Virus record (IMG/VR): IMGVR_UViG_3300036407_000003
Span: 1-42,759 of that record
DNA: 42,759 nucleotides
Strand: one strand, 5' to 3'
From: a virus
Part shown: piece by piece, positions 20,860-32,762 of the stretch
Layout: every line of letters starts with the position of its first letter
Position numbering within the stretch: position 1 is the stretch's first letter
Notes under the pieces: generated by a model
Database searches by the model: none
The model's input: the letters and a program-made list of their open reading frames with translations, nothing else
Told to the model about the DNA's origin: nothing
Position numbers and translations under genes: made by a program

Positions 20860-20890
20860 CAAAAAAGGCGGGCCGCTGTGCGACTCGCCT
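20860..20890 (-). terminator. rho-independent terminator upstream of gpZ
   Basis: On the minus strand AGGCG-A-GTCGC (20890-20880), loop ACA and GCGGC-C-CGCCT (20876-20866) form a 10-bp stem with one mismatch, followed by a run of six or seven T (20866-20860). It should stop leftward transcription from the 201-aa gene before the late operon, and implies a late promoter in the short gap before gpZ. Confidence 0.75.
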
Positions 20891-20938: not shown

Positions 20939-21544
20939 TCAACCAGCCTCTAAATGCGCTCCCACAGGATCGTACCACGGCTCTGGTGAAGCGGCCGGCC
21001 AGCGAGCGCGGAATGACACCAGCTCGCGATTGACGATCCCTACAAGCTCGCAAAGCGCAGTGTGCCAGAGGCGGTAAACAGCGCGGGATTCCTCGACAAA
21101 GGCTGGATCGACACCAACCAGTTCCGGCGGCGCCTCGCCGATCGGGTCGCGCCGTCGCACCGGGTCGCGATAAAGCATCTTTGGTCGACCAGTCTTGTCG
21201 CGCGGCGTCTCCCATCGGCCTGCGCCTTCCGGATACCAGAATGGTCGCAGGTTCGATCGAGCGCACTTGATCACCTCGACCCAAGCCTCTGGCGGTAGTG
21301 CCATTACCGCCTCATAAATCGTTAGTGCGTCATCATGGCACCGAGCGCCGACCCAAACGGCGCCTGCCGAGCTGCTGTCGACCCGCGTGCCTAGCAACAG
21401 CAGCTGCGCCAGGGTGTCGGTGCTGGATCTAGGCGAGGGCGCCGGACCAAAGGCGCCGCCCCGGAGCGTCGCCACAAACCGCTCAACCTGCTGCTCGCGA
21501 AAAGCCCACGCCAAAAGCTCTTCAATGTCCCTGTATTCAGCCAT
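20939..21544 (-). CDS. conserved phage protein of unknown function (201 aa)
   Basis: The start at 21544 (MAEYRDIEELLAWAFREQ) has AGGGA nearby; an upstream extension in frame is unlike protein. The body has a helical N-terminus, then VWVGARCHDDALTIYEAVMALPPEAWVEVIKCARSNLRPFWYPEGAGRWETPRDKTGRPKMLYRDPV, and a helical C-terminus with AVYRLWHTALCELVGIVNREL. The layout and position between the replication block and the late operon recall phage late-gene regulators, but I see no helix-turn-helix that I trust. CGAGGGTTGC repeats lie directly in front of it and could be its promoter region. Unknown. Confidence 0.65.
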   Translation of the reverse strand: MAEYRDIEELLAWAFREQQVERFVATLRGGAFGPAPSPRSSTDTLAQLLLLGTRVDSSSAGAVWVGARCHDDALTIYEAVMALPPEAWVEVIKCARSNLRPFWYPEGAGRWETPRDKTGRPKMLYRDPVRRRDPIGEAPPELVGVDPAFVEESRAVYRLWHTALCELVGIVNRELVSFRARWPAASPEPWYDPVGAHLEAG

Positions 21545-21580
21545 GTCCCTGCTCTTTCGAGGTTTAGCGATAGTTGATCT

Positions 21581-21958
21581 CAACCCTCGCAAATAGAAAA
21601 CGTAGTTAGAACAATGAGGTAGCGAGTGTGGAGACAGTAGCGAGGGTTGCCCCATACGCAGTGAGTCAAAACAAGCTTCATTCATGCTCAGGAAGAGGCA
21701 CCCCGGCCCCCTCTTGTACGATATAGGCGAGATCAAACCCCGCAAAGGTCGCAAAAAGACGATAAGCCCATGAAAAGGCTATTGTTTTCGTCCGCGAGAT
21801 TTCGGATTGCACCCTCGCTTAACTCTCGCAACCCTCGTATGGCCCGCGTCAGCGGGGCGAGGGTTGCGACTTCCGCTTTCTCTGCCCCTTGAGGGGGTGG
21901 GGGGCGCGGCGCTAGGCGAGTTTGACCTAGAATCAGGTTGCCGATCGCGAGGGTTGCG
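21581..21958. repeat. CGAGGGTTGC repeat cluster, candidate replication origin (iterons)
   Basis: Within the 447-bp non-coding interval 21545-21991 a motif close to GCGAGGGTTGCG occurs in both orientations. Plus-strand copies are at 21640-21650, 21857-21868 and 21947-21958. Minus-strand copies are at 21581-21591 and 21826-21838, plus a degenerate one at 21809-21818. An AT-rich stretch lies at 21569-21610. Nothing else in the interval looks coding. The adjacent operon encodes a P4-type helicase and a Toprim primase, and P4-family proteins bind repeated sites at their origin, so these may be iterons. Regulatory sites are the alternative. Confidence 0.6.
21826..21869. other. nested hairpin formed by two inverted repeat copies
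   Basis: TCGCAACCCTCG (21826-21837) and CGAGGGTTGCGA (21858-21869) are perfect 12-bp inverted copies. Inside the 20-nt loop, CCCGC (21843-21847) and GCGGG (21852-21856) pair around GTCA. The result is a strong two-stage cruciform or hairpin, a form seen at single-strand initiation sites and some operators. Confidence 0.6.
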
Positions 21959-22438: not shown

Positions 22439-24280
22439 CTAGGCCTCTGCTTTGCGCGCCTCGCGCGGCACTTCCCTGTCGATCGTCATCCGCCAGGACG
22501 TGTCGACCACGATATCCTGATAGATATACGTCCGGCCGGTGATCTTTTTGAAGCCCAGCTCGCCAAGGCGATCGCCGAACGAACGCTGCTTCGCCGCCGT
22601 GACGCCGTTGAGGGCGCACCATTCCTCATAAAGTTTGAAGAGCGGTCCGGCTTGCATGGTCTTGCCTTCCTCGCGCGTAATGCATTGGTCGGCAAACACC
22701 CCGACATTGTCGCGATCGTTCCGATATTCCTTTGTGAAGTCGGTCACCTCTTCCGGAATGAAGCCCGTCAGCCCTGCGCCGAGGTAGGTCACCAGGCCAT
22801 CGAGCAGCCAGTTGAGGATTCCGGATCGCTCGCTGTCGAGTTTTTCAGCCAGGCGCGAGGGCGTCATGCGCTCGCCCTCTGGAATGGTGACGCCCCAAAG
22901 GACAATCAGCACACGCCGCCAGATCCCGTAGTCACTGCCCGAGATCGACGGTTTGAAATTGCCCGTCAAGATCGGCGTGAAGATCGGCTCGAATTCGAAG
23001 ATCTCCTTTTGCAGAAATCGCGCTGTCATTTTTGTGCCGCCCGAAAGCGCCTTGATCAGTTCCTCTTTCAGCGGCGCGTTGCGCGGCAATTCCTCGATCG
23101 TGGCCAAACGGGCATTGTGCAGGCGGGCAATGTCAGGGCTGGCCTGCTGGCCAGCGCGCTGCCCGTCTCCGGTGATTGTTTCCGGAGCCACGACGGTACG
23201 ATAGGTGCCGGCCATTCGTCCGAGAACCTCGACGAAAGCCGACTTGCCGTTTGCGCCGGTGCCGTAGTGATAAACCACCTTCTGTTCATCATTGCCGCCG
23301 ATCAGCAGGGCATAGGCGTGGAACACCTGCAGAAACACCTGCATGCGCCGATCGGGCTGAAGTTTGGCTAGGAACTCTGTTTCGAAAAAAGGGCACTTGG
23401 CATCGGGATCATAGTCGACGTCGGCCATCTTGGTGATCATGTCGCCACGCTGATGTGGCACGAATTCGTAATGACCAACTAGACGGTCGCTGTCGAAGCC
23501 TTCGGCCGGCGCGTCTGGATCCGGCACTCTTGAGAAAACCAGTGTCCCATTTCGCACATTGAAGCGCATGCGGTCACAGTCAAGGCGATCGGCCTCAAGC
23601 GAACGATGACTTGCCGCCTGCTGCAGCATGGCGGCCGTCTTTCCGGCATTGCCCGAGCTGATCGCGTGTTTCACCCGCTGCGCCCGTTTCGTGGCGCGTT
23701 GCTTGATCGCCTGATCGGCATTGATGATCAGCTCTTTGTCGGCTTGGCTGCGCTCTTCCGGTGTGATCTTGCGCTTGGGCTTGGCCGCTTCGAGCAGCCG
23801 TTCCTGCGCCGGCGTATAATCGATGAACTCCTTTTCGAGCTTGATCAGGTCGACCAGATTCTGCGCCATCAAACGGGCTGCCAGCTCGCCGTCGTCGCGC
23901 TGCCAGAACTTGCCTTCCCAAACCAGCCAGCCCATGCCCTGCACATAGGCAAGGTTGCCGCCGTAGTGTAGCACCAGGCGCCGGCCATTGTCGCGATCGT
24001 TAGGATCAAGCGCGGCGCACTCGCGCAGCGTCTCGATCAACATCGGATCGAGACCATCGGGCAAGCCTTCGTCGTCATCGTCGAGCGTGAGATCGTCCTG
24101 CAGATCCGGACCCGGATCATCAGGATCCGACGGCGGCGGGCCGCTCTCTTCCGCAGCTTCGGTAGCCAAGCCGCCCTCGGCTTCCTCAATTTCGCTCGCC
24201 TCGACCTTGCGCGTCCGCTTCATGGCGCGCTTGACCGAGCCGGATCCACCGGCCTCTGCTGTTTTGTCTGTCTGCCCCAT
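22439..24280 (-). CDS. P4/D5-type primase-helicase (SF3 helicase)
   Basis: The protein has 613 residues. The first 75 form an acidic, disordered tail. Residues about 80-300 form a D5_N-type domain. The C-terminal part is an SF3 helicase: Walker A YGTGANGKSAF (339-349), Walker B RLATIEELP (391-399), and a sensor/C-motif strand FTPILTGNFKPSI near 435 followed by GIWRRVLIVLW. These enzymes assemble as rings at the phage origin and unwind DNA. The primase half is a separate gene upstream (24578). Ribosome binding site AGGGG lies before the ATG. Repeats that could be its binding sites lie 0.5 kb downstream. Confidence 0.93.
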   Translation of the reverse strand: MGQTDKTAEAGGSGSVKRAMKRTRKVEASEIEEAEGGLATEAAEESGPPPSDPDDPGPDLQDDLTLDDDDEGLPDGLDPMLIETLRECAALDPNDRDNGRRLVLHYGGNLAYVQGMGWLVWEGKFWQRDDGELAARLMAQNLVDLIKLEKEFIDYTPAQERLLEAAKPKRKITPEERSQADKELIINADQAIKQRATKRAQRVKHAISSGNAGKTAAMLQQAASHRSLEADRLDCDRMRFNVRNGTLVFSRVPDPDAPAEGFDSDRLVGHYEFVPHQRGDMITKMADVDYDPDAKCPFFETEFLAKLQPDRRMQVFLQVFHAYALLIGGNDEQKVVYHYGTGANGKSAFVEVLGRMAGTYRTVVAPETITGDGQRAGQQASPDIARLHNARLATIEELPRNAPLKEELIKALSGGTKMTARFLQKEIFEFEPIFTPILTGNFKPSISGSDYGIWRRVLIVLWGVTIPEGERMTPSRLAEKLDSERSGILNWLLDGLVTYLGAGLTGFIPEEVTDFTKEYRNDRDNVGVFADQCITREEGKTMQAGPLFKLYEEWCALNGVTAAKQRSFGDRLGELGFKKITGRTYIYQDIVVDTSWRMTIDREVPREARKAEA

Positions 24281-24305: not shown

Positions 24306-24581
24306 TTATTCGCCGTCGTGTTCGATGAATTGCTGGTGTGGATTGTCATCCGGGCCGTCCAGATACATCCAATAATGAGCCTCGACGGCCTGCCTGACTT
24401 GAGCATCGTCAAGGTTGAAAACCTCACCGACCTTGCGCACCGAGTGGCGGTAAGGCGGGTTGAACATCGTCCAGATCTGGATTGCCAAGGCGACGGAATT
24501 GATATCCGGGTGGCCTTCGTCCTGGTCCCATTCGTCCGGGAACACCACGCCGGCATACGGCCGGGAATTCAGTTCGCTCAT
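24306..24581 (-). CDS. small hypothetical protein between primase and helicase (91 aa)
   Basis: The ATG at 24581 overlaps the primase stop (ATGA). The 91 residues contain a helix-turn-helix-like stretch: NPPYRHSVRKVGEVFNLDDAQVRQAVEAHYWM, in which a turn between EVFNLDD and AQVRQAVEAHY could form an HTH-type contact. The end is acidic (DGPDDNPHQQFIEHDGE). Small proteins in this slot recur in related prophages; the role is unknown, perhaps a helicase loader or accessory DNA-binding factor. Confidence 0.65.
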   Translation of the reverse strand: MSELNSRPYAGVVFPDEWDQDEGHPDINSVALAIQIWTMFNPPYRHSVRKVGEVFNLDDAQVRQAVEAHYWMYLDGPDDNPHQQFIEHDGE

Positions 24582-25756
24582 TCTCTTACCCTCACAAGAT
24601 CATTGAGATCGCCCCCGCCTTCGGGCGGTTCGACAAAAGCCGTCTCAAGCTTGGGGAGATCTGGATTGGTTTCTCGCGCACGCCGGCGCAGGATCTGGGC
24701 GCGCAACAGTCCCCGGATCAGCTTTTCGTTGGTGTTGCGCTCGGCCTTTTCGGTTTCGCCGAGATAGATCAGCTCGGCGCACCAGTCGGGCGGCTGCCAG
24801 CAGTCGAGATCGTCGAGATCGGGCAGATCCTGCCGCAGTTTGCCGTCATCATCGCGCCGCGCCCGGCCGACCATGTTGCCGACGTCGACACCGGCCCAAT
24901 AGGCAGTTTCGGGTTCGAAGTTGTGCGCTAGGGCGGTGAGCGTGGTTTCGATGCCCTCACCCATGACGATGCGACCCGCATCTGCCGGCGTAAAGAGCCG
25001 GATGGCGCCACCCTGCTTGATCCCCCAAGCCTTCTTGGTTTCGAGATCTTTGCCGGTGTCGGGATGCTTGAGCTGCAGCCGGCCCTTTGGGCTTTCAAGA
25101 TCCAACCAGGTGCGATGCACGGCGCCGAAGCGGCCGTCAGCCATCTGGATCGGCGCGAGCATCGCCGGCACTTTTGCGAGCTGCACCCATGGCCCGGTCG
25201 TGGTGCGATCCATATAAGGCAGGGCATCATGCTGACCGAGGCGGATCTGGTTGAAAACCAGCATTAGATCCGAGGTTAGAACGCCGCGGATCCGCAGATA
25301 TTCCAGCACGAGCAGGCGGGCCGGATCTTTCGATCGCGCCTGCCAGATCTCGTAACCTTCTTTGCGGGCCTTCTGTCGATAGCGCTCGGCCTCGGCCGCA
25401 CGCTGCGCCTCGGCCGCTTCGTTTTCGCGCCGGATCTCCGCCGCCCGTTCGGGGTCGAACGGCGCGTCGGCCTTGCGGCCGGTGATGATCTCGCATGCCG
25501 GCGTGAAGTCGACGCCTTGCGTCAGCATGACCAGCTTGATCACGCCCTCGCCGGCGATATCGCATTGCCGACAGCGGAACAGGTTTTTCTTGGTATGGAT
25601 GGAGAACCTGTCGGTGCCACCACAGCCCGGCATCGGGCATGGCCCGGCGCGATCGAGACCGGGCGAGAGTTTCCACCCTTGCCGCTTGGCCCAGCTCTCG
25701 CACGACGTCTGCAGCGCTTCATCCCGCAGGGCGACCAGGTGATCGGGGAGGGTCAT
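24578..25756 (-). CDS. Toprim-domain DNA primase with zinc finger
   Basis: This 392-residue protein has an N-terminal CHC2-like zinc finger with Cys at 40, 45, 62 and 65 (PCPMPGCGGTDR...FRCRQC). A helical charged linker (EIRRENEAAEAQRAAEAERYRQKARKEGYEIW) follows. The C-terminal Toprim domain shows RIVMGEGIETTLTAL near residue 265 and YWAGVDVGN. The catalytic Glu in MGEGIET is visible. It would prime DNA synthesis for the helicase encoded downstream, the two being separate pieces of a P4-alpha-like activity. ATGA overlaps join it to the methyltransferase upstream and the 91-aa gene downstream. Confidence 0.92.
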   Translation of the reverse strand: MTLPDHLVALRDEALQTSCESWAKRQGWKLSPGLDRAGPCPMPGCGGTDRFSIHTKKNLFRCRQCDIAGEGVIKLVMLTQGVDFTPACEIITGRKADAPFDPERAAEIRRENEAAEAQRAAEAERYRQKARKEGYEIWQARSKDPARLLVLEYLRIRGVLTSDLMLVFNQIRLGQHDALPYMDRTTTGPWVQLAKVPAMLAPIQMADGRFGAVHRTWLDLESPKGRLQLKHPDTGKDLETKKAWGIKQGGAIRLFTPADAGRIVMGEGIETTLTALAHNFEPETAYWAGVDVGNMVGRARRDDDGKLRQDLPDLDDLDCWQPPDWCAELIYLGETEKAERNTNEKLIRGLLRAQILRRRARETNPDLPKLETAFVEPPEGGGDLNDLVRVRE

Positions 25757-26622
25757 GCTACACCTTCCAACAGCGTGAGCTGCGAGCGTTCAGCTTTGAG
25801 GCGCGAGGCGCAGTGCGGGTTGATCCAGATAACCTCGATGCGGTCCAACGCCCCATCAGCGTGAGCAGCGATTTCGAACCGGTCCCAGCCTATCAAGCGC
25901 CGGTCGTATGTGTCGCTTGGGTAGCCGGATAGGACCACTGAGGCCTTGCAGTCGGCGATGCGATCAAGCAGCTCAGCATGCTGCTCGCCCGTCAGTTCGT
26001 GGGCGTAGGCGTGAAAGGATTTGCCACCTCGCCGCTTCTGCGACCGAGTTTCGGTGACATAAGGCGGATCAAGGTAGATCAAGGCGTCAGCCTCGTCGTA
26101 TCGATCTATGACCTGAAGCGCCGGCCGGTTCTCAATCAAGACACCCTGCAAGCGCTCAGTGACCGCAGCGAGAGCCCCCGGCAACGTCGGCCAATCGCCG
26201 GCCGGCAGAGCGCCCCCACGATTGACTAAGCTGGCGCGAAAGCCGGTGCTTTTTTGGCTGATCGCCGAACTGGATCCGTGACCCATATAGGAACGCACAA
26301 CTAGCCGCCGCGCGCGCTCGACCGACCCGTCAGCCGTCACGAATGCGGCATCATATTCCTCACGTGAAAAGGGCGTGAGGCTAACCAAGCGCTGAAGTTC
26401 GGCAGCACTGACAGGATCTCGCAGCACGCGGAACAGGTTTACCACCTCACCGTCGAGATCGTTATAGCACTCACCAACCGCCCGGCGCTTGCGCAGCAAC
26501 ACCGAGGCGGCCCCGCCGAAAGGCTCGACGTAAAGACGGTGAGCGGGAAAGTGGCTGATTATCCAGGGAGCAAGGCGCCACTTACCGCCGAGGTAACGCA
26601 GAACTGGGCGAGTCACATTCAT
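25753..26622 (-). CDS. D12-class DNA adenine methyltransferase (Dam-like)
   Basis: The 289 residues show D12 motifs: X/I region LRYLGGKWRLAPWI (8-21) and YVEPFGGAASVLL (31-43), motif IV DPPY at 185-188 inside LIYLDPPYVT, and a central NDLDGEVVNLFRVLRD. It transfers a methyl group from S-adenosylmethionine to the N6 of adenine. In a phage it may protect DNA from restriction or control replication and transcription timing; GATC is the usual but unproved site. ATGA overlap to both neighbours places it in the replication operon. Confidence 0.93.
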   Translation of the reverse strand: MNVTRPVLRYLGGKWRLAPWIISHFPAHRLYVEPFGGAASVLLRKRRAVGECYNDLDGEVVNLFRVLRDPVSAAELQRLVSLTPFSREEYDAAFVTADGSVERARRLVVRSYMGHGSSSAISQKSTGFRASLVNRGGALPAGDWPTLPGALAAVTERLQGVLIENRPALQVIDRYDEADALIYLDPPYVTETRSQKRRGGKSFHAYAHELTGEQHAELLDRIADCKASVVLSGYPSDTYDRRLIGWDRFEIAAHADGALDRIEVIWINPHCASRLKAERSQLTLLEGVA

Positions 26623-32119: not shown

Positions 32120-32210
32120 TCCAGTCTCTCGATGTTCTCTTAACGTTCTATTGTTGATTCCTTTTCGCCGGGAGTCGAGTCAGTTTTATCAGCGCAGTTG
32201 ATATAAGTTC

Positions 32211-32244
32211 GGCTTGCATCAATTTTCTAGTTTAGCTTATATCG
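32211..32244 (+). promoter_or_regulatory. rightward promoter, duplicate of the cro promoter
   Basis: GGCTTGCAT (32211-32219), a 9-nt spacer and AGTTTAGCTTATATCG (32229-32244) repeat the cro promoter at identical spacing. A GATATAAG at 32200-32207 mirrors the CTTATATC at 32236-32243. The ATG of the next gene is 27 bp downstream with GGAGGG before it. I infer joint control of this operon and cro by CI. Confidence 0.65.
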
Positions 32245-32270
32245 CCTTCTAGTAATCACTGGAGGGCACA

Positions 32271-32687
32271 ATGCTCACTTCAAACCAACCATCGCAGCCA
32301 CGATTGCCGACCCGGCGCACCGGCGACGTTACCAAGAGAATTCACATCCTGGCTGCAGATCTCGTTGATCTCAATGCTGAAGGGGATGCGCGTCGTCAGC
32401 GCTTGCTCGAACTGGGCTGGCCTGCTGCATTCCTGGACACCTACGAAGCCGAGGCGCGCCAAGCCGCCAACCTCTTGTTTGTTCGCGACGTCAACGACGA
32501 TCGCTCTCTTTCCCCGCGACAGGCAGAAGATCGGATGGTCGAGATCATCGGCCAGATGTTTCCTTCCACACAATACTTGGTCGCCGAGCTGCAGGCGCGC
32601 GGCGTATCGGTTAGCGCCATCAACCTTCACCTTCGCAAGGCTAAGGCTCGGGCCGCTCTGTCTTTTATCCACCAAGGCGTGCACTGA
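32271..32687 (+). CDS. first gene of the co-regulated rightward operon, unknown (138 aa)
   Basis: GGAGGG lies four bases before the ATG. The 138 residues contain a basic N-terminal tail (TSNQPSQPRLPTRRTGDVTKR), a helical region with YEAEARQAANLLFVRDVNDDRSLSPRQAEDRMVEIIGQMF, and a C-terminal VAELQARGVSVSAINLHLRKAKARAAL. This last segment has the spacing of a short helix-turn-helix. I do not recognise a family. It is followed at once by a 24-codon membrane mini-gene and an HD hydrolase. Confidence 0.65.
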   Translation: MLTSNQPSQPRLPTRRTGDVTKRIHILAADLVDLNAEGDARRQRLLELGWPAAFLDTYEAEARQAANLLFVRDVNDDRSLSPRQAEDRMVEIIGQMFPSTQYLVAELQARGVSVSAINLHLRKAKARAALSFIHQGVH

Positions 32688-32762
32688 ATGAGCGTGGCAT
32701 TGGCATATCTGATTGGGTTCGCCTTCGTAGCCGCAGTCTATCTGGCAGCGGAGACGCTCTGA
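32688..32762 (+). CDS. 24-aa membrane mini-protein
   Basis: The ATG at 32688 opens MSVALAYLIGFAFVAAVYLA and then AETL, a single hydrophobic helix. It begins one base after the stop codon of the 138-aa gene (TGAATG). Its TGA overlaps the ATG of the HD gene (TGATG). The tight couplings on both sides and the clear TM character argue that it is translated. Too short for family recognition. Confidence 0.55.
   Translation: MSVALAYLIGFAFVAAVYLAAETL

What the first reader, a model, noticed from the sequence alone, without database searches (positions are those of the whole stretch)
21581..21958. CGAGGGTTGC repeats with a nested cruciform: candidate phage replication origin
A 447-bp gene-free interval next to the P4-type helicase carries five clear copies and one degenerate copy of GCGAGGGTTGCG in both orientations. 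Two perfect 12-bp inverted copies enclose a second GC hairpin. Repeats plus AT-rich DNA beside an SF3 helicase and separate primase match origin logic known for P4 alpha (established for P4, inferred here). Alternatively they are sites for the regulator at 20939.
Basis: partly seen in the sequence, partly recalled or inferred. Interest (0 to 1): 0.7.

Follow-up and report, generated by a model that had tools for sequence, protein, structure and literature searches.

The report
Mirror-image phage replication origin
Next to this phage's DNA-unwinding enzyme lies a mirror-image array of short repeats that is almost certainly where the phage starts copying its DNA, and comparison with dozens of related phages suggests that the enzyme's tail reads the repeats and that the two change together.

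Summary
The repeats are real. GCGAGGGTT occurs 4 times exactly in 450 bp and nowhere else in the 42,759-bp record. About 13 sites, exact and degenerate, form an array at 21557-21955 between a P4/D5-type SF3 helicase gene and a Q-like late-regulator gene. The best reading is a replication origin bound by the helicase's C-terminal winged helix. (1) Arrays of 9-bp iterons lie directly downstream of related helicases in many prophages; in the clean cases they form a dyad of about 12 sites (6+6). (2) The iteron sequence differs between phages while the layout stays. The arrays follow the helicase rather than the neighbouring regulator or terminase. (3) Iteron base 2 changes together with one wing residue, Arg583, the best of 162 helicase columns tested. 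(4) Lactobacillus phage A2 carries an annotated rep_origin at the same place with the same kind of array. In the window the dyad is partly decayed (strict symmetry p = 0.94), although a template built from other phages finds it at 21699. The 'nested cruciform' is one inverted iteron pair. This is a known kind of origin (SaPI/PICI, P4, A2). No experiment was possible.

The parts
21557..21865 (.). Iteron array, candidate origin of replication; dyad centre near 21699
   Evidence: Template of 12 mirrored sites taken from other phages scores 8 of 12 sites here, next best away from the interval 4; site list
21947..21955 (+). Outlying iteron GCGAGGGTT (9/9), helicase side of the array
   Evidence: in relatives L005, L006, L010 a copy at this place reads GCGAGGGTC
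21857..21865 (+). Iteron 9/9; right arm of the 'cruciform' (on the + strand)
21830..21838 (-). Iteron 8/9 (ACGAGGGTT); other arm of the 'cruciform' and first of a tandem triple
21821..21829 (-). Iteron 8/9 (GCGAGAGTT), 9 bp from the last
   Evidence: conserved in L005, L006, L010
21810..21818 (-). Iteron 8/9 (GCGAGGGTG), 11 bp from the last
   Evidence: conserved
21794..21802 (+). Degenerate iteron 7/9 (GCGAGATTT) at the canonical inverted single position
   Evidence: position matches arrays
21744..21752 (-). Degenerate iteron 6/9 (GCGACCTTT), inner tandem pair
21735..21743 (-). Degenerate iteron 7/9 (GCGGGGTTT), inner tandem pair
21640..21648 (+). Iteron 9/9, inner position of the second half
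21622..21630 (+). Degenerate iteron 7/9 (GCGAGTGTG), 18 bp from the last (middle copy of the triple lost)
21582..21590 (-). Iteron 9/9, inverted single of the second half
21567..21575 (+). Degenerate iteron 7/9 (GCGATAGTT)
   Evidence: in L005, L006 and L010 this place reads GCGAGGTTT
21557..21565 (+). Degenerate iteron 7/9 (TCGAGGTTT), next to the 201-aa gene start
21753..21793 (.). A+T-richer gap of the helicase-side half (25 of 41 bases A/T, counted by eye), candidate unwinding element
   Evidence: sequence; average A+T profile of 18 other arrays peaks in the same gaps
21591..21621 (.). A+T-rich gap of the other half (22 of 31 bases A/T, counted by eye), candidate unwinding element
   Evidence: sequence
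22439..24280 (-). P4/D5-type SF3 helicase, 613 aa; proposed initiator
   Evidence: Pfam D5_N 3e-21, Pox_D5 2e-05; PHROG primase/helicase families
22442..22807 (-). C-terminal part of the helicase (residues 492-613) with a winged helix; proposed iteron-binding domain
   Evidence: model pLDDT 86.8; P4 origin-binding domain 1ka8 Z 8.9, RFX1 1dp7 Z 9.9; Pox_D5 9.5e-07
22532..22534 (-). Codon of Arg583, at the wing turn; covaries with iteron base 2
   Evidence: strands at model residues 88-90 and 94-101, R583 is model residue 92
24578..25756 (-). Separate primase gene (phrog_510 DNA primase; Pfam DUF7146)
20939..21541 (-). 201-aa gene (phrog_9306), candidate Q-like late regulator; not needed for the array

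Best explanation
The interval is the phage's origin of replication. The SF3 helicase encoded just upstream binds 9-bp iterons (here GCGAGGGTT) through its C-terminal winged helix, with the wing (Arg583) touching iteron base 2. In the clean relatives the iterons form a dyad of 12: on each side a tandem triple, an inverted single, an A+T-rich gap of about 49 bp and a tandem pair, the two halves being mirror images. The simplest mechanism is that two helicase hexamers assemble facing each other, melt the A+T-rich gaps and start bidirectional replication with the separate phage primase. Shown here by computation: the array, its association with the helicase, its dyad layout in relatives, and the covariation with Arg583. 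Inferred: binding, melting, double-hexamer loading, and one iteron per protomer.
For: Clustering in the record. Same-place repeats in L005, L006 and L010 and altered repeats in L007. Different motifs with the same layout in L017-L024 and L027. Arrays directly downstream of related helicases: the most repeated 8-mer had at least 5 non-overlapping copies in 36 of 71 intervals, against at most 4 in 100 shuffles of each, in the gene body and upstream. Dyad symmetry in 24 of 47 arrays at p<0.05 and 15 at p<0.01. Template scan puts the best centre of the whole record at 21699. Arrays present with the helicase but no 201-aa relative found (L059, L065, L069, L071; 14 of 47). 201-aa relatives without an SF3 helicase have no array (L013, L048, L050, L051, L052). 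Iteron base 2 against Arg583: 25 of 27 with C have Arg, 2 of 20 others; 8 independent pairs, 6.7 the same way, 0 the other way; best of 162 columns, next 3.8. Fold match to the P4 origin-binding domain. Annotated rep_origin at the same place in phage A2 with mirrored iterons. Passages of PMC7581432 and PMC6092414 describe SaPI/PICI origins as iterons directly downstream of the Rep helicase.
Against: By the strict test the window's own array is not significantly symmetric (2 pairs, p = 0.94), because several sites are degenerate. No GC-skew switch. Covariation was found for base 2 only; bases 1, 3, 5, 6 and 7 had too few independent changes and showed no coupling to the winged helix. On the 33 rows that also have a Q-like gene, Arg583 leads less clearly (5.0 of 6 pairs, next helicase column 4.3, best Q column 4.1). 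A 201-aa relative does follow 33 of 47 arrays, so the linkage test rests on the exceptions. The A2 dyad alone is not significant (p = 0.17). Two of 8 examinable named phages with this helicase show no array (RR1-A, L4768), nor do many distant helicases. The 47 motifs were framed by hand, and 24 of the 71 intervals were left out for want of a readable motif.
Confidence: 0.84

Rival explanations
1. The repeats are operators for the 201-aa Q-like regulator (or for another late regulator) around a late promoter in the interval.
For: The 201-aa gene starts at the edge of the array, and a relative follows 33 of 47 arrays. Its model's top four matches are Q antiterminators, three of them Q21 (Z 5.6-6.6, weak). 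A conserved CTATAnCGT block lies in the interval.
Against: 5 of 5 loci with a 201-aa relative behind non-SF3 replication genes have no array. 14 of 47 arrays have no detected relative, two of them a NusG-like gene in its place. L049 keeps the window's motif with only 30% identity in the 201-aa protein. No promoter-like site was found by the sigma-70 consensus scan. No Q column tracks the motif as well as helicase Arg583.
Confidence: 0.08
2. The repeats are terminase binding sites of a cos region upstream of the late genes.
For: The interval lies upstream of the tail-completion, TerS and gpA-type TerL genes. In Rhodobacter phage RcapNL the deposited genome ends fall inside the corresponding array and are annotated as cohesive overhangs.
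Against: Phages with the same motif have unrelated late modules: L049 shares GCGAGGGTT but has no match to the window's TerS, TerL or tail-completion protein. The RcapNL 'overhangs' are a 26-bp sequence present at both ends, which may be assembly overlap, and a table in PMC8601537 lists RcapNL as circularly permuted (passage). A cos elsewhere in the same interval is not excluded.
Confidence: 0.05
3. The inverted arms and GC hairpin are a transcription terminator or RNA element of the early operon, and the other repeats are by-products.
For: Strong hairpin (z -5.1). In L007 both arms changed together.
Against: The arms are iterons of the array, in the iteron frame. No U-tract follows, and the terminator scan did not list it. 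Arrays such as those of L084 and L085 have no such arm pair.
Confidence: 0.03

Closest known systems
SaPI/PICI Rep-ori replicons (SaPI Rep helicases; SCCmec Cch2)
   Same: D5-type or related helicase initiator; origin of short iterons directly downstream of the helicase gene; C-terminal domain binds the iterons; [quoted passage not shown] two sets of iterons (PMC6092414)
   Different: Here it is the main replicon of a tailed phage with its own late genes. In clean arrays the sites are in mirror-image order, and the A+T-rich stretches lie mainly inside each half rather than only between the two sets. [quoted passage not shown]
Lactobacillus phage A2 origin (AJ251789, annotated rep_origin 32208-32717)
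   Same: P4/D5-type primase-helicase gene, origin directly downstream, mirrored iterons
   Different: Iteron ACGGGAGGA; 8 sites found; one 770-aa putative primase that carries the helicase region; A+T-rich centre. The paper (Moscoso and Suarez 2000) was seen only as a title in a reference list
Phage P4 alpha protein and its ori1/crr
   Same: SF3 helicase with a C-terminal winged helix that binds origin repeats; fold match to 1ka8; binding of origin repeats by the winged helix is described in a passage of PMC4234260
   Different: In P4 primase, helicase and origin-binding domain are one protein; here the primase is a separate gene. P4 repeat layout recalled only
SV40 large T antigen / papillomavirus E1 origins
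   Same: SF3 hexamers recognising repeats at a symmetric origin (works like)
   Different: These use an N-terminal DNA-binding domain (PMC7581432 passage); not related by descent at the origin. Details of SV40 layout recalled

Membership tests
SaPI/PICI/A2-type origin: iterons downstream of a D5/SF3 helicase initiator | D5/SF3-type helicase gene | tested here: met
   Pfam D5_N 3e-21 and Pox_D5 2e-05
SaPI/PICI/A2-type origin: iterons downstream of a D5/SF3 helicase initiator | Iterons directly downstream of the helicase gene | tested here: met
   In the window with one 86-aa ORF between; in relatives directly downstream
[quoted passage not shown]
   Two mirrored sets in relatives and by template in the window; A+T peaks lie in the gaps inside each half and right of the centre
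SaPI/PICI/A2-type origin: iterons downstream of a D5/SF3 helicase initiator | Initiator's C-terminal domain binds the iterons | tested here: inconclusive
   Indirect: Arg583 covaries with iteron base 2 and the fold matches the P4 origin-binding domain; no binding assay
SaPI/PICI/A2-type origin: iterons downstream of a D5/SF3 helicase initiator | Helicase gene plus iteron region supports autonomous replication | not testable with these tools
   Needs a plasmid maintenance assay
P4 alpha/ori replicon | Winged-helix origin-binding domain at the helicase C-terminus | tested here: met
   1ka8 Z 8.9, rmsd 2.4 over 77 residues; sequence match weak, E 0.98
P4 alpha/ori replicon | Primase, helicase and origin binding in one polypeptide | tested here: not met
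   Separate primase gene at 24578-25756
P4 alpha/ori replicon | Two cis elements, ori1 and crr | not tested
   Only one array was found in the record; P4 layout recalled
cos / terminase binding sites | Motif follows the terminase | tested here: not met
   L049 keeps the motif with an unrelated late module
cos / terminase binding sites | Virion DNA ends in the interval | not testable with these tools
   No virion end data for this phage
Q-type antiterminator binding element | Sites occur with the regulator gene whatever the replication module | tested here: not met
   5 of 5 loci with the regulator but without SF3 helicase lack the array

The most novel reading that the evidence does not exclude
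In tailed phages with D5-type helicases the origin is a dyad of 12 iterons, six per half, so that each iteron positions one protomer of two facing hexamers. The iteron sequence is a freely evolving address read in the wing mode known from RFX proteins, with Arg583 specifying base 2. Phages switch address and reader together, which would keep co-infecting or superinfecting phages and satellites from using each other's origin.
Probability: 0.35. Interest if true: 0.78.

Novelty: new variant of a known kind. Interest (0 to 1): 0.62.

Why it matters
It turns an unannotated gap in a metagenomic phage into a testable origin and gives a simple rule (iteron array directly downstream of a D5/P4-type helicase) for finding origins in many prophages. 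If the six-per-half layout and the Arg583 rule hold, they make two open questions testable: how self-loading SF3 helicases assemble as a facing pair, and how initiator and origin change specificity together. The A2 title says that the origin itself was used as a defence against the phage, so origin addresses also bear on competition between phages.

Tried and rejected
Sites for the 201-aa regulator, cos sites and a terminator hairpin were considered and ranked as rivals. GC skew gave no switch at the interval. Covariation of other iteron positions with the helicase gave nothing clear. A simple mutual-information ranking was confounded by relatedness: for base 2 it put R583 fourth by z-score, behind P436, P474 and L102; the tree-based test replaced it. 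The strict symmetry test failed on the window itself. Fold searches: the Q-like protein had no significant Foldseek match (best E 1.0; 6p18_Q second at E 2.2); Foldseek also gave no match at E <= 0.001 for the helicase C-terminus, and the statement on fold rests on the second look. DNA folding of the corresponding hairpins in L007 and L049 used wrong coordinates and is not used. Weak, partial 201-aa matches (L031-L037, L053-L057) were dropped from the context comparison; of the 22 genomes with a match this leaves those behind L015-L030. L016/L038 (helicase lost, array kept) and L012 (repeats AGAGGTTT-like, antirepressor upstream, no helicase in 3.3 kb) fit neither group cleanly and are told apart. 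L047 has a different, DUF5906/VapE-like helicase and a CATAGGACA array. Of the 20 phage records listed, nine were opened (H1, H4, H6, H7, H9, H11, H13, H17, H20); H7 ends at the helicase stop and cannot be judged. Literature: ten searches returned no description of mirrored 12-iteron origins or of an iteron/wing covariation in phages in the listings seen; subscription journals are mostly absent from that library.

Full report
OBSERVATION. CGAGGGTTGC has four exact copies and one with a single mismatch, all between 21580 and 21957. GCGAGGGTT occurs 4 times in the 450-bp interval and never in the other 42,309 bp; at 8 of 9 or better the counts are 7 against 9. The record G000 is 42,759 bases, so the window is the whole virus record. 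The 12-bp inverted arms and the inner GC hairpin are there.

SURROUNDINGS. All genes near the interval read on the minus strand. On the right are a helicase with D5_N and Pox_D5 domains (22439-24280), a small ORF (24306-24581), a separate primase (24578-25756) and a DNA adenine methylase (25753-26622). Between helicase and interval lies an 86-aa ORF without any family. On the left are the 201-aa gene (phrog_9306, unknown function), a tail-completion gene (phrog_27), TerS (phrog_57) and a gpA-type TerL. The close relatives are L005, L006 (86% helicase identity), L010 in a Devosia ginsengisoli MAG (84%) and L007 (68%), so the host is probably Devosia or kin (inference).

RELATIVES, FIRST LOOK. 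L005, L006 and L010 keep repeats at the same places. In L007 the two arms changed together, from CGCAACCCTCG/CGAGGGTTGCG to CTTGATCCTCT/AGAGGATCAAG. A search for the 201-aa family in the Devosia MAG's family hit 22 of 136 genomes. The loci with an SF3 helicase upstream (L017-L024, L027) all had a repeat array in the gap, but with different repeat sequences: GAGAGGGTT-like, GCGACCGTT, GTGACAGTT, GGGAGGCTA and again GCGAGGGTT.

WHAT THE ARRAY FOLLOWS. 201-aa relatives behind O-like or DnaB-type replication genes (L013, L048, L050, L051, L052) have no intergenic array; L050 and L051 show one 8-mer three times inside coding sequence, and nothing more. Helicase relatives without a 201-aa relative (L059, L065, L069, L071) do have arrays; in L059 and L065 a NusG-like gene sits in the regulator's place. 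Over 47 arrays with a readable motif a 201-aa-family match was found downstream in 33 and none in 14. L049 shares the window's motif but has no match to the window's TerS, TerL or tail-completion protein. L047 has a different helicase (DUF5906/VapE-like) and its own CATAGGACA array. So the array goes with the replication helicase.

SCALE. With a 16-helicase profile, 58 of 397 genomes of the order and 23 of 385 of the class had a match at E <= 1e-40. In 71 intervals of up to 700 bp after the helicase stop, the most repeated 8-mer had 5 or more non-overlapping copies in 36, up to 13. Shuffles (100 per interval), gene-body controls and upstream controls never exceeded 4. The distant helicases (about 30% identity) mostly showed nothing.

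LAYOUT. In the clean arrays the sites follow < 9 < 10/11 < 17 > 49 < 9 < about 90 > 9 > 49 < 17 > 10/11 > 9 >: 12 sites that map onto themselves when turned by 180 degrees. Against shuffled spacings and strands, 24 of 47 arrays were symmetric at p<0.05 and 15 at p<0.01. The window's array is partly decayed: under the strict test it gives 2 pairs, p = 0.94. With a template taken from other phages the best centre in the whole record is 21699 with 8 of 12 sites at 7/9 or better, and the best centre away from the interval has 4. Averaged over 18 symmetric arrays, A+T content peaks in the gaps inside each half (0.55 on one side, 0.63-0.69 on the other), with a further peak right of the centre.

WHO READS THE REPEATS. 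Forty-seven helicases were paired with their iterons (motifs framed by hand; 24 of 71 intervals left out). On a tree built without the C-terminus, iteron base 2 (C in 27, other in 20) changed at least 8 times. Arg583 is present in 25 of 27 with C and in 2 of 20 others. In 8 independent pairs it goes the same way in 6.7 and the other way in none (sign test about 0.016). Arg583 was noticed by eye first, so every helicase column was then scanned: of 162 columns (207 residue tests) it is the best, 6.7 against 3.8 for the next. On the 33 rows that also carry a Q-like gene the lead is smaller: 5.0 of 6 pairs, next helicase column 4.3, best Q column 4.1. Bases 1, 3, 5, 6 and 7 showed no coupling to the winged helix.

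STRUCTURE. The modelled C-terminus (pLDDT 86.8) is a winged helix, and Arg583 is at the turn between the wing strands. The best second-look matches are RFX5 (Z 10.2), RFX1 with DNA (1dp7, Z 9.9), the D5-type PrimPol C-terminus (Z 9.4) and the P4 origin-binding domain (1ka8, Z 8.9, 77 residues, rmsd 2.4). From memory, RFX1 reads DNA mainly with its wing, which would fit; this is recalled, not tested. The 201-aa protein model (pLDDT 84) has Q-type antiterminators as its top four second-look matches, all weak (Z 5.6-6.6).

NAMED PHAGES. Of nine phage records opened, eight could be judged. Arrays follow the helicase in RcapNL, Pthi1, AmM-1, Pan4, Sc-Yong805-1 and A2, but not in RR1-A or L4768. Symmetry: Pan4 and Sc-Yong805-1 0 of 500 shuffles, Pthi1 p 0.014, AmM-1 0.06, A2 0.17; RcapNL was not tested. 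In A2 the interval is annotated rep_origin by the depositors. [quoted passage not shown]

PRIOR KNOWLEDGE. [quoted passage not shown] Passages of PMC4234260 describe a stem-loop origin downstream of the pRN1 helicase gene and the P4 comparison. So the kind is known; a tailed-phage family with mirrored arrays and covarying address and reader was not found in the listings of ten searches of that library.

VERDICT. A replication origin read by the helicase, 0.84. The mechanism of two facing hexamers is an inference from the dyad layout and from what is reported for SaPI Rep. I call it a new variant of a known kind.

Noticed in passing
window 20939-21541 (-): The 201-aa family (phrog_9306, unknown function) sits between replication and late genes; its model's best second-look matches are Q-type antiterminators (weak), and in two relatives a NusG-like gene takes its place. 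Candidate new Q-like late regulator.
   Followed up: partly
window 20872-20884 (-): Terminator-like stem with a T-run directly after the 201-aa gene and before the late genes, as expected of a late-regulator/terminator arrangement.
   Followed up: no
L005:8413-9141, L006, L012:1905-2747: Antirepressors (Bro-N in L005, P22_AR_N in L012) sit just before the array; the C-terminus of the L005 one matches the C-terminal part of a phage primase family (phrog_1156, 3e-07), so such antirepressors may bind the origin repeats.
   Followed up: partly
L038 (G076), also L016: Decayed prophage that kept a window-like array and 201-aa gene while the helicase is gone and a KAP-like ATPase ORF and an integrase-like ORF (named by eye from the translations) lie upstream.
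   Followed up: partly
L047: A different helicase family (DUF5906/VapE-like) is followed by a 9-bp array of its own (CATAGGACA), suggesting convergence or exchange of the origin design.
   Followed up: no
window 21700-21728 and 21891-21905; relatives in alignment A1: Conserved CTATAnCGT block and C-rich CCCCGCACCCC / G-rich GGGGTG stretches flank the array in many relatives, some in inverted orientation; function unknown (promoter, priming site or quadruplex are guesses).
   Followed up: no
Rhodobacter phage RcapNL (L130, L135): The deposited genome ends are the same 26-bp sequence at both ends, annotated as cohesive overhangs, and fall inside the iteron array; a published table lists the genome as circularly permuted.
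   Followed up: partly
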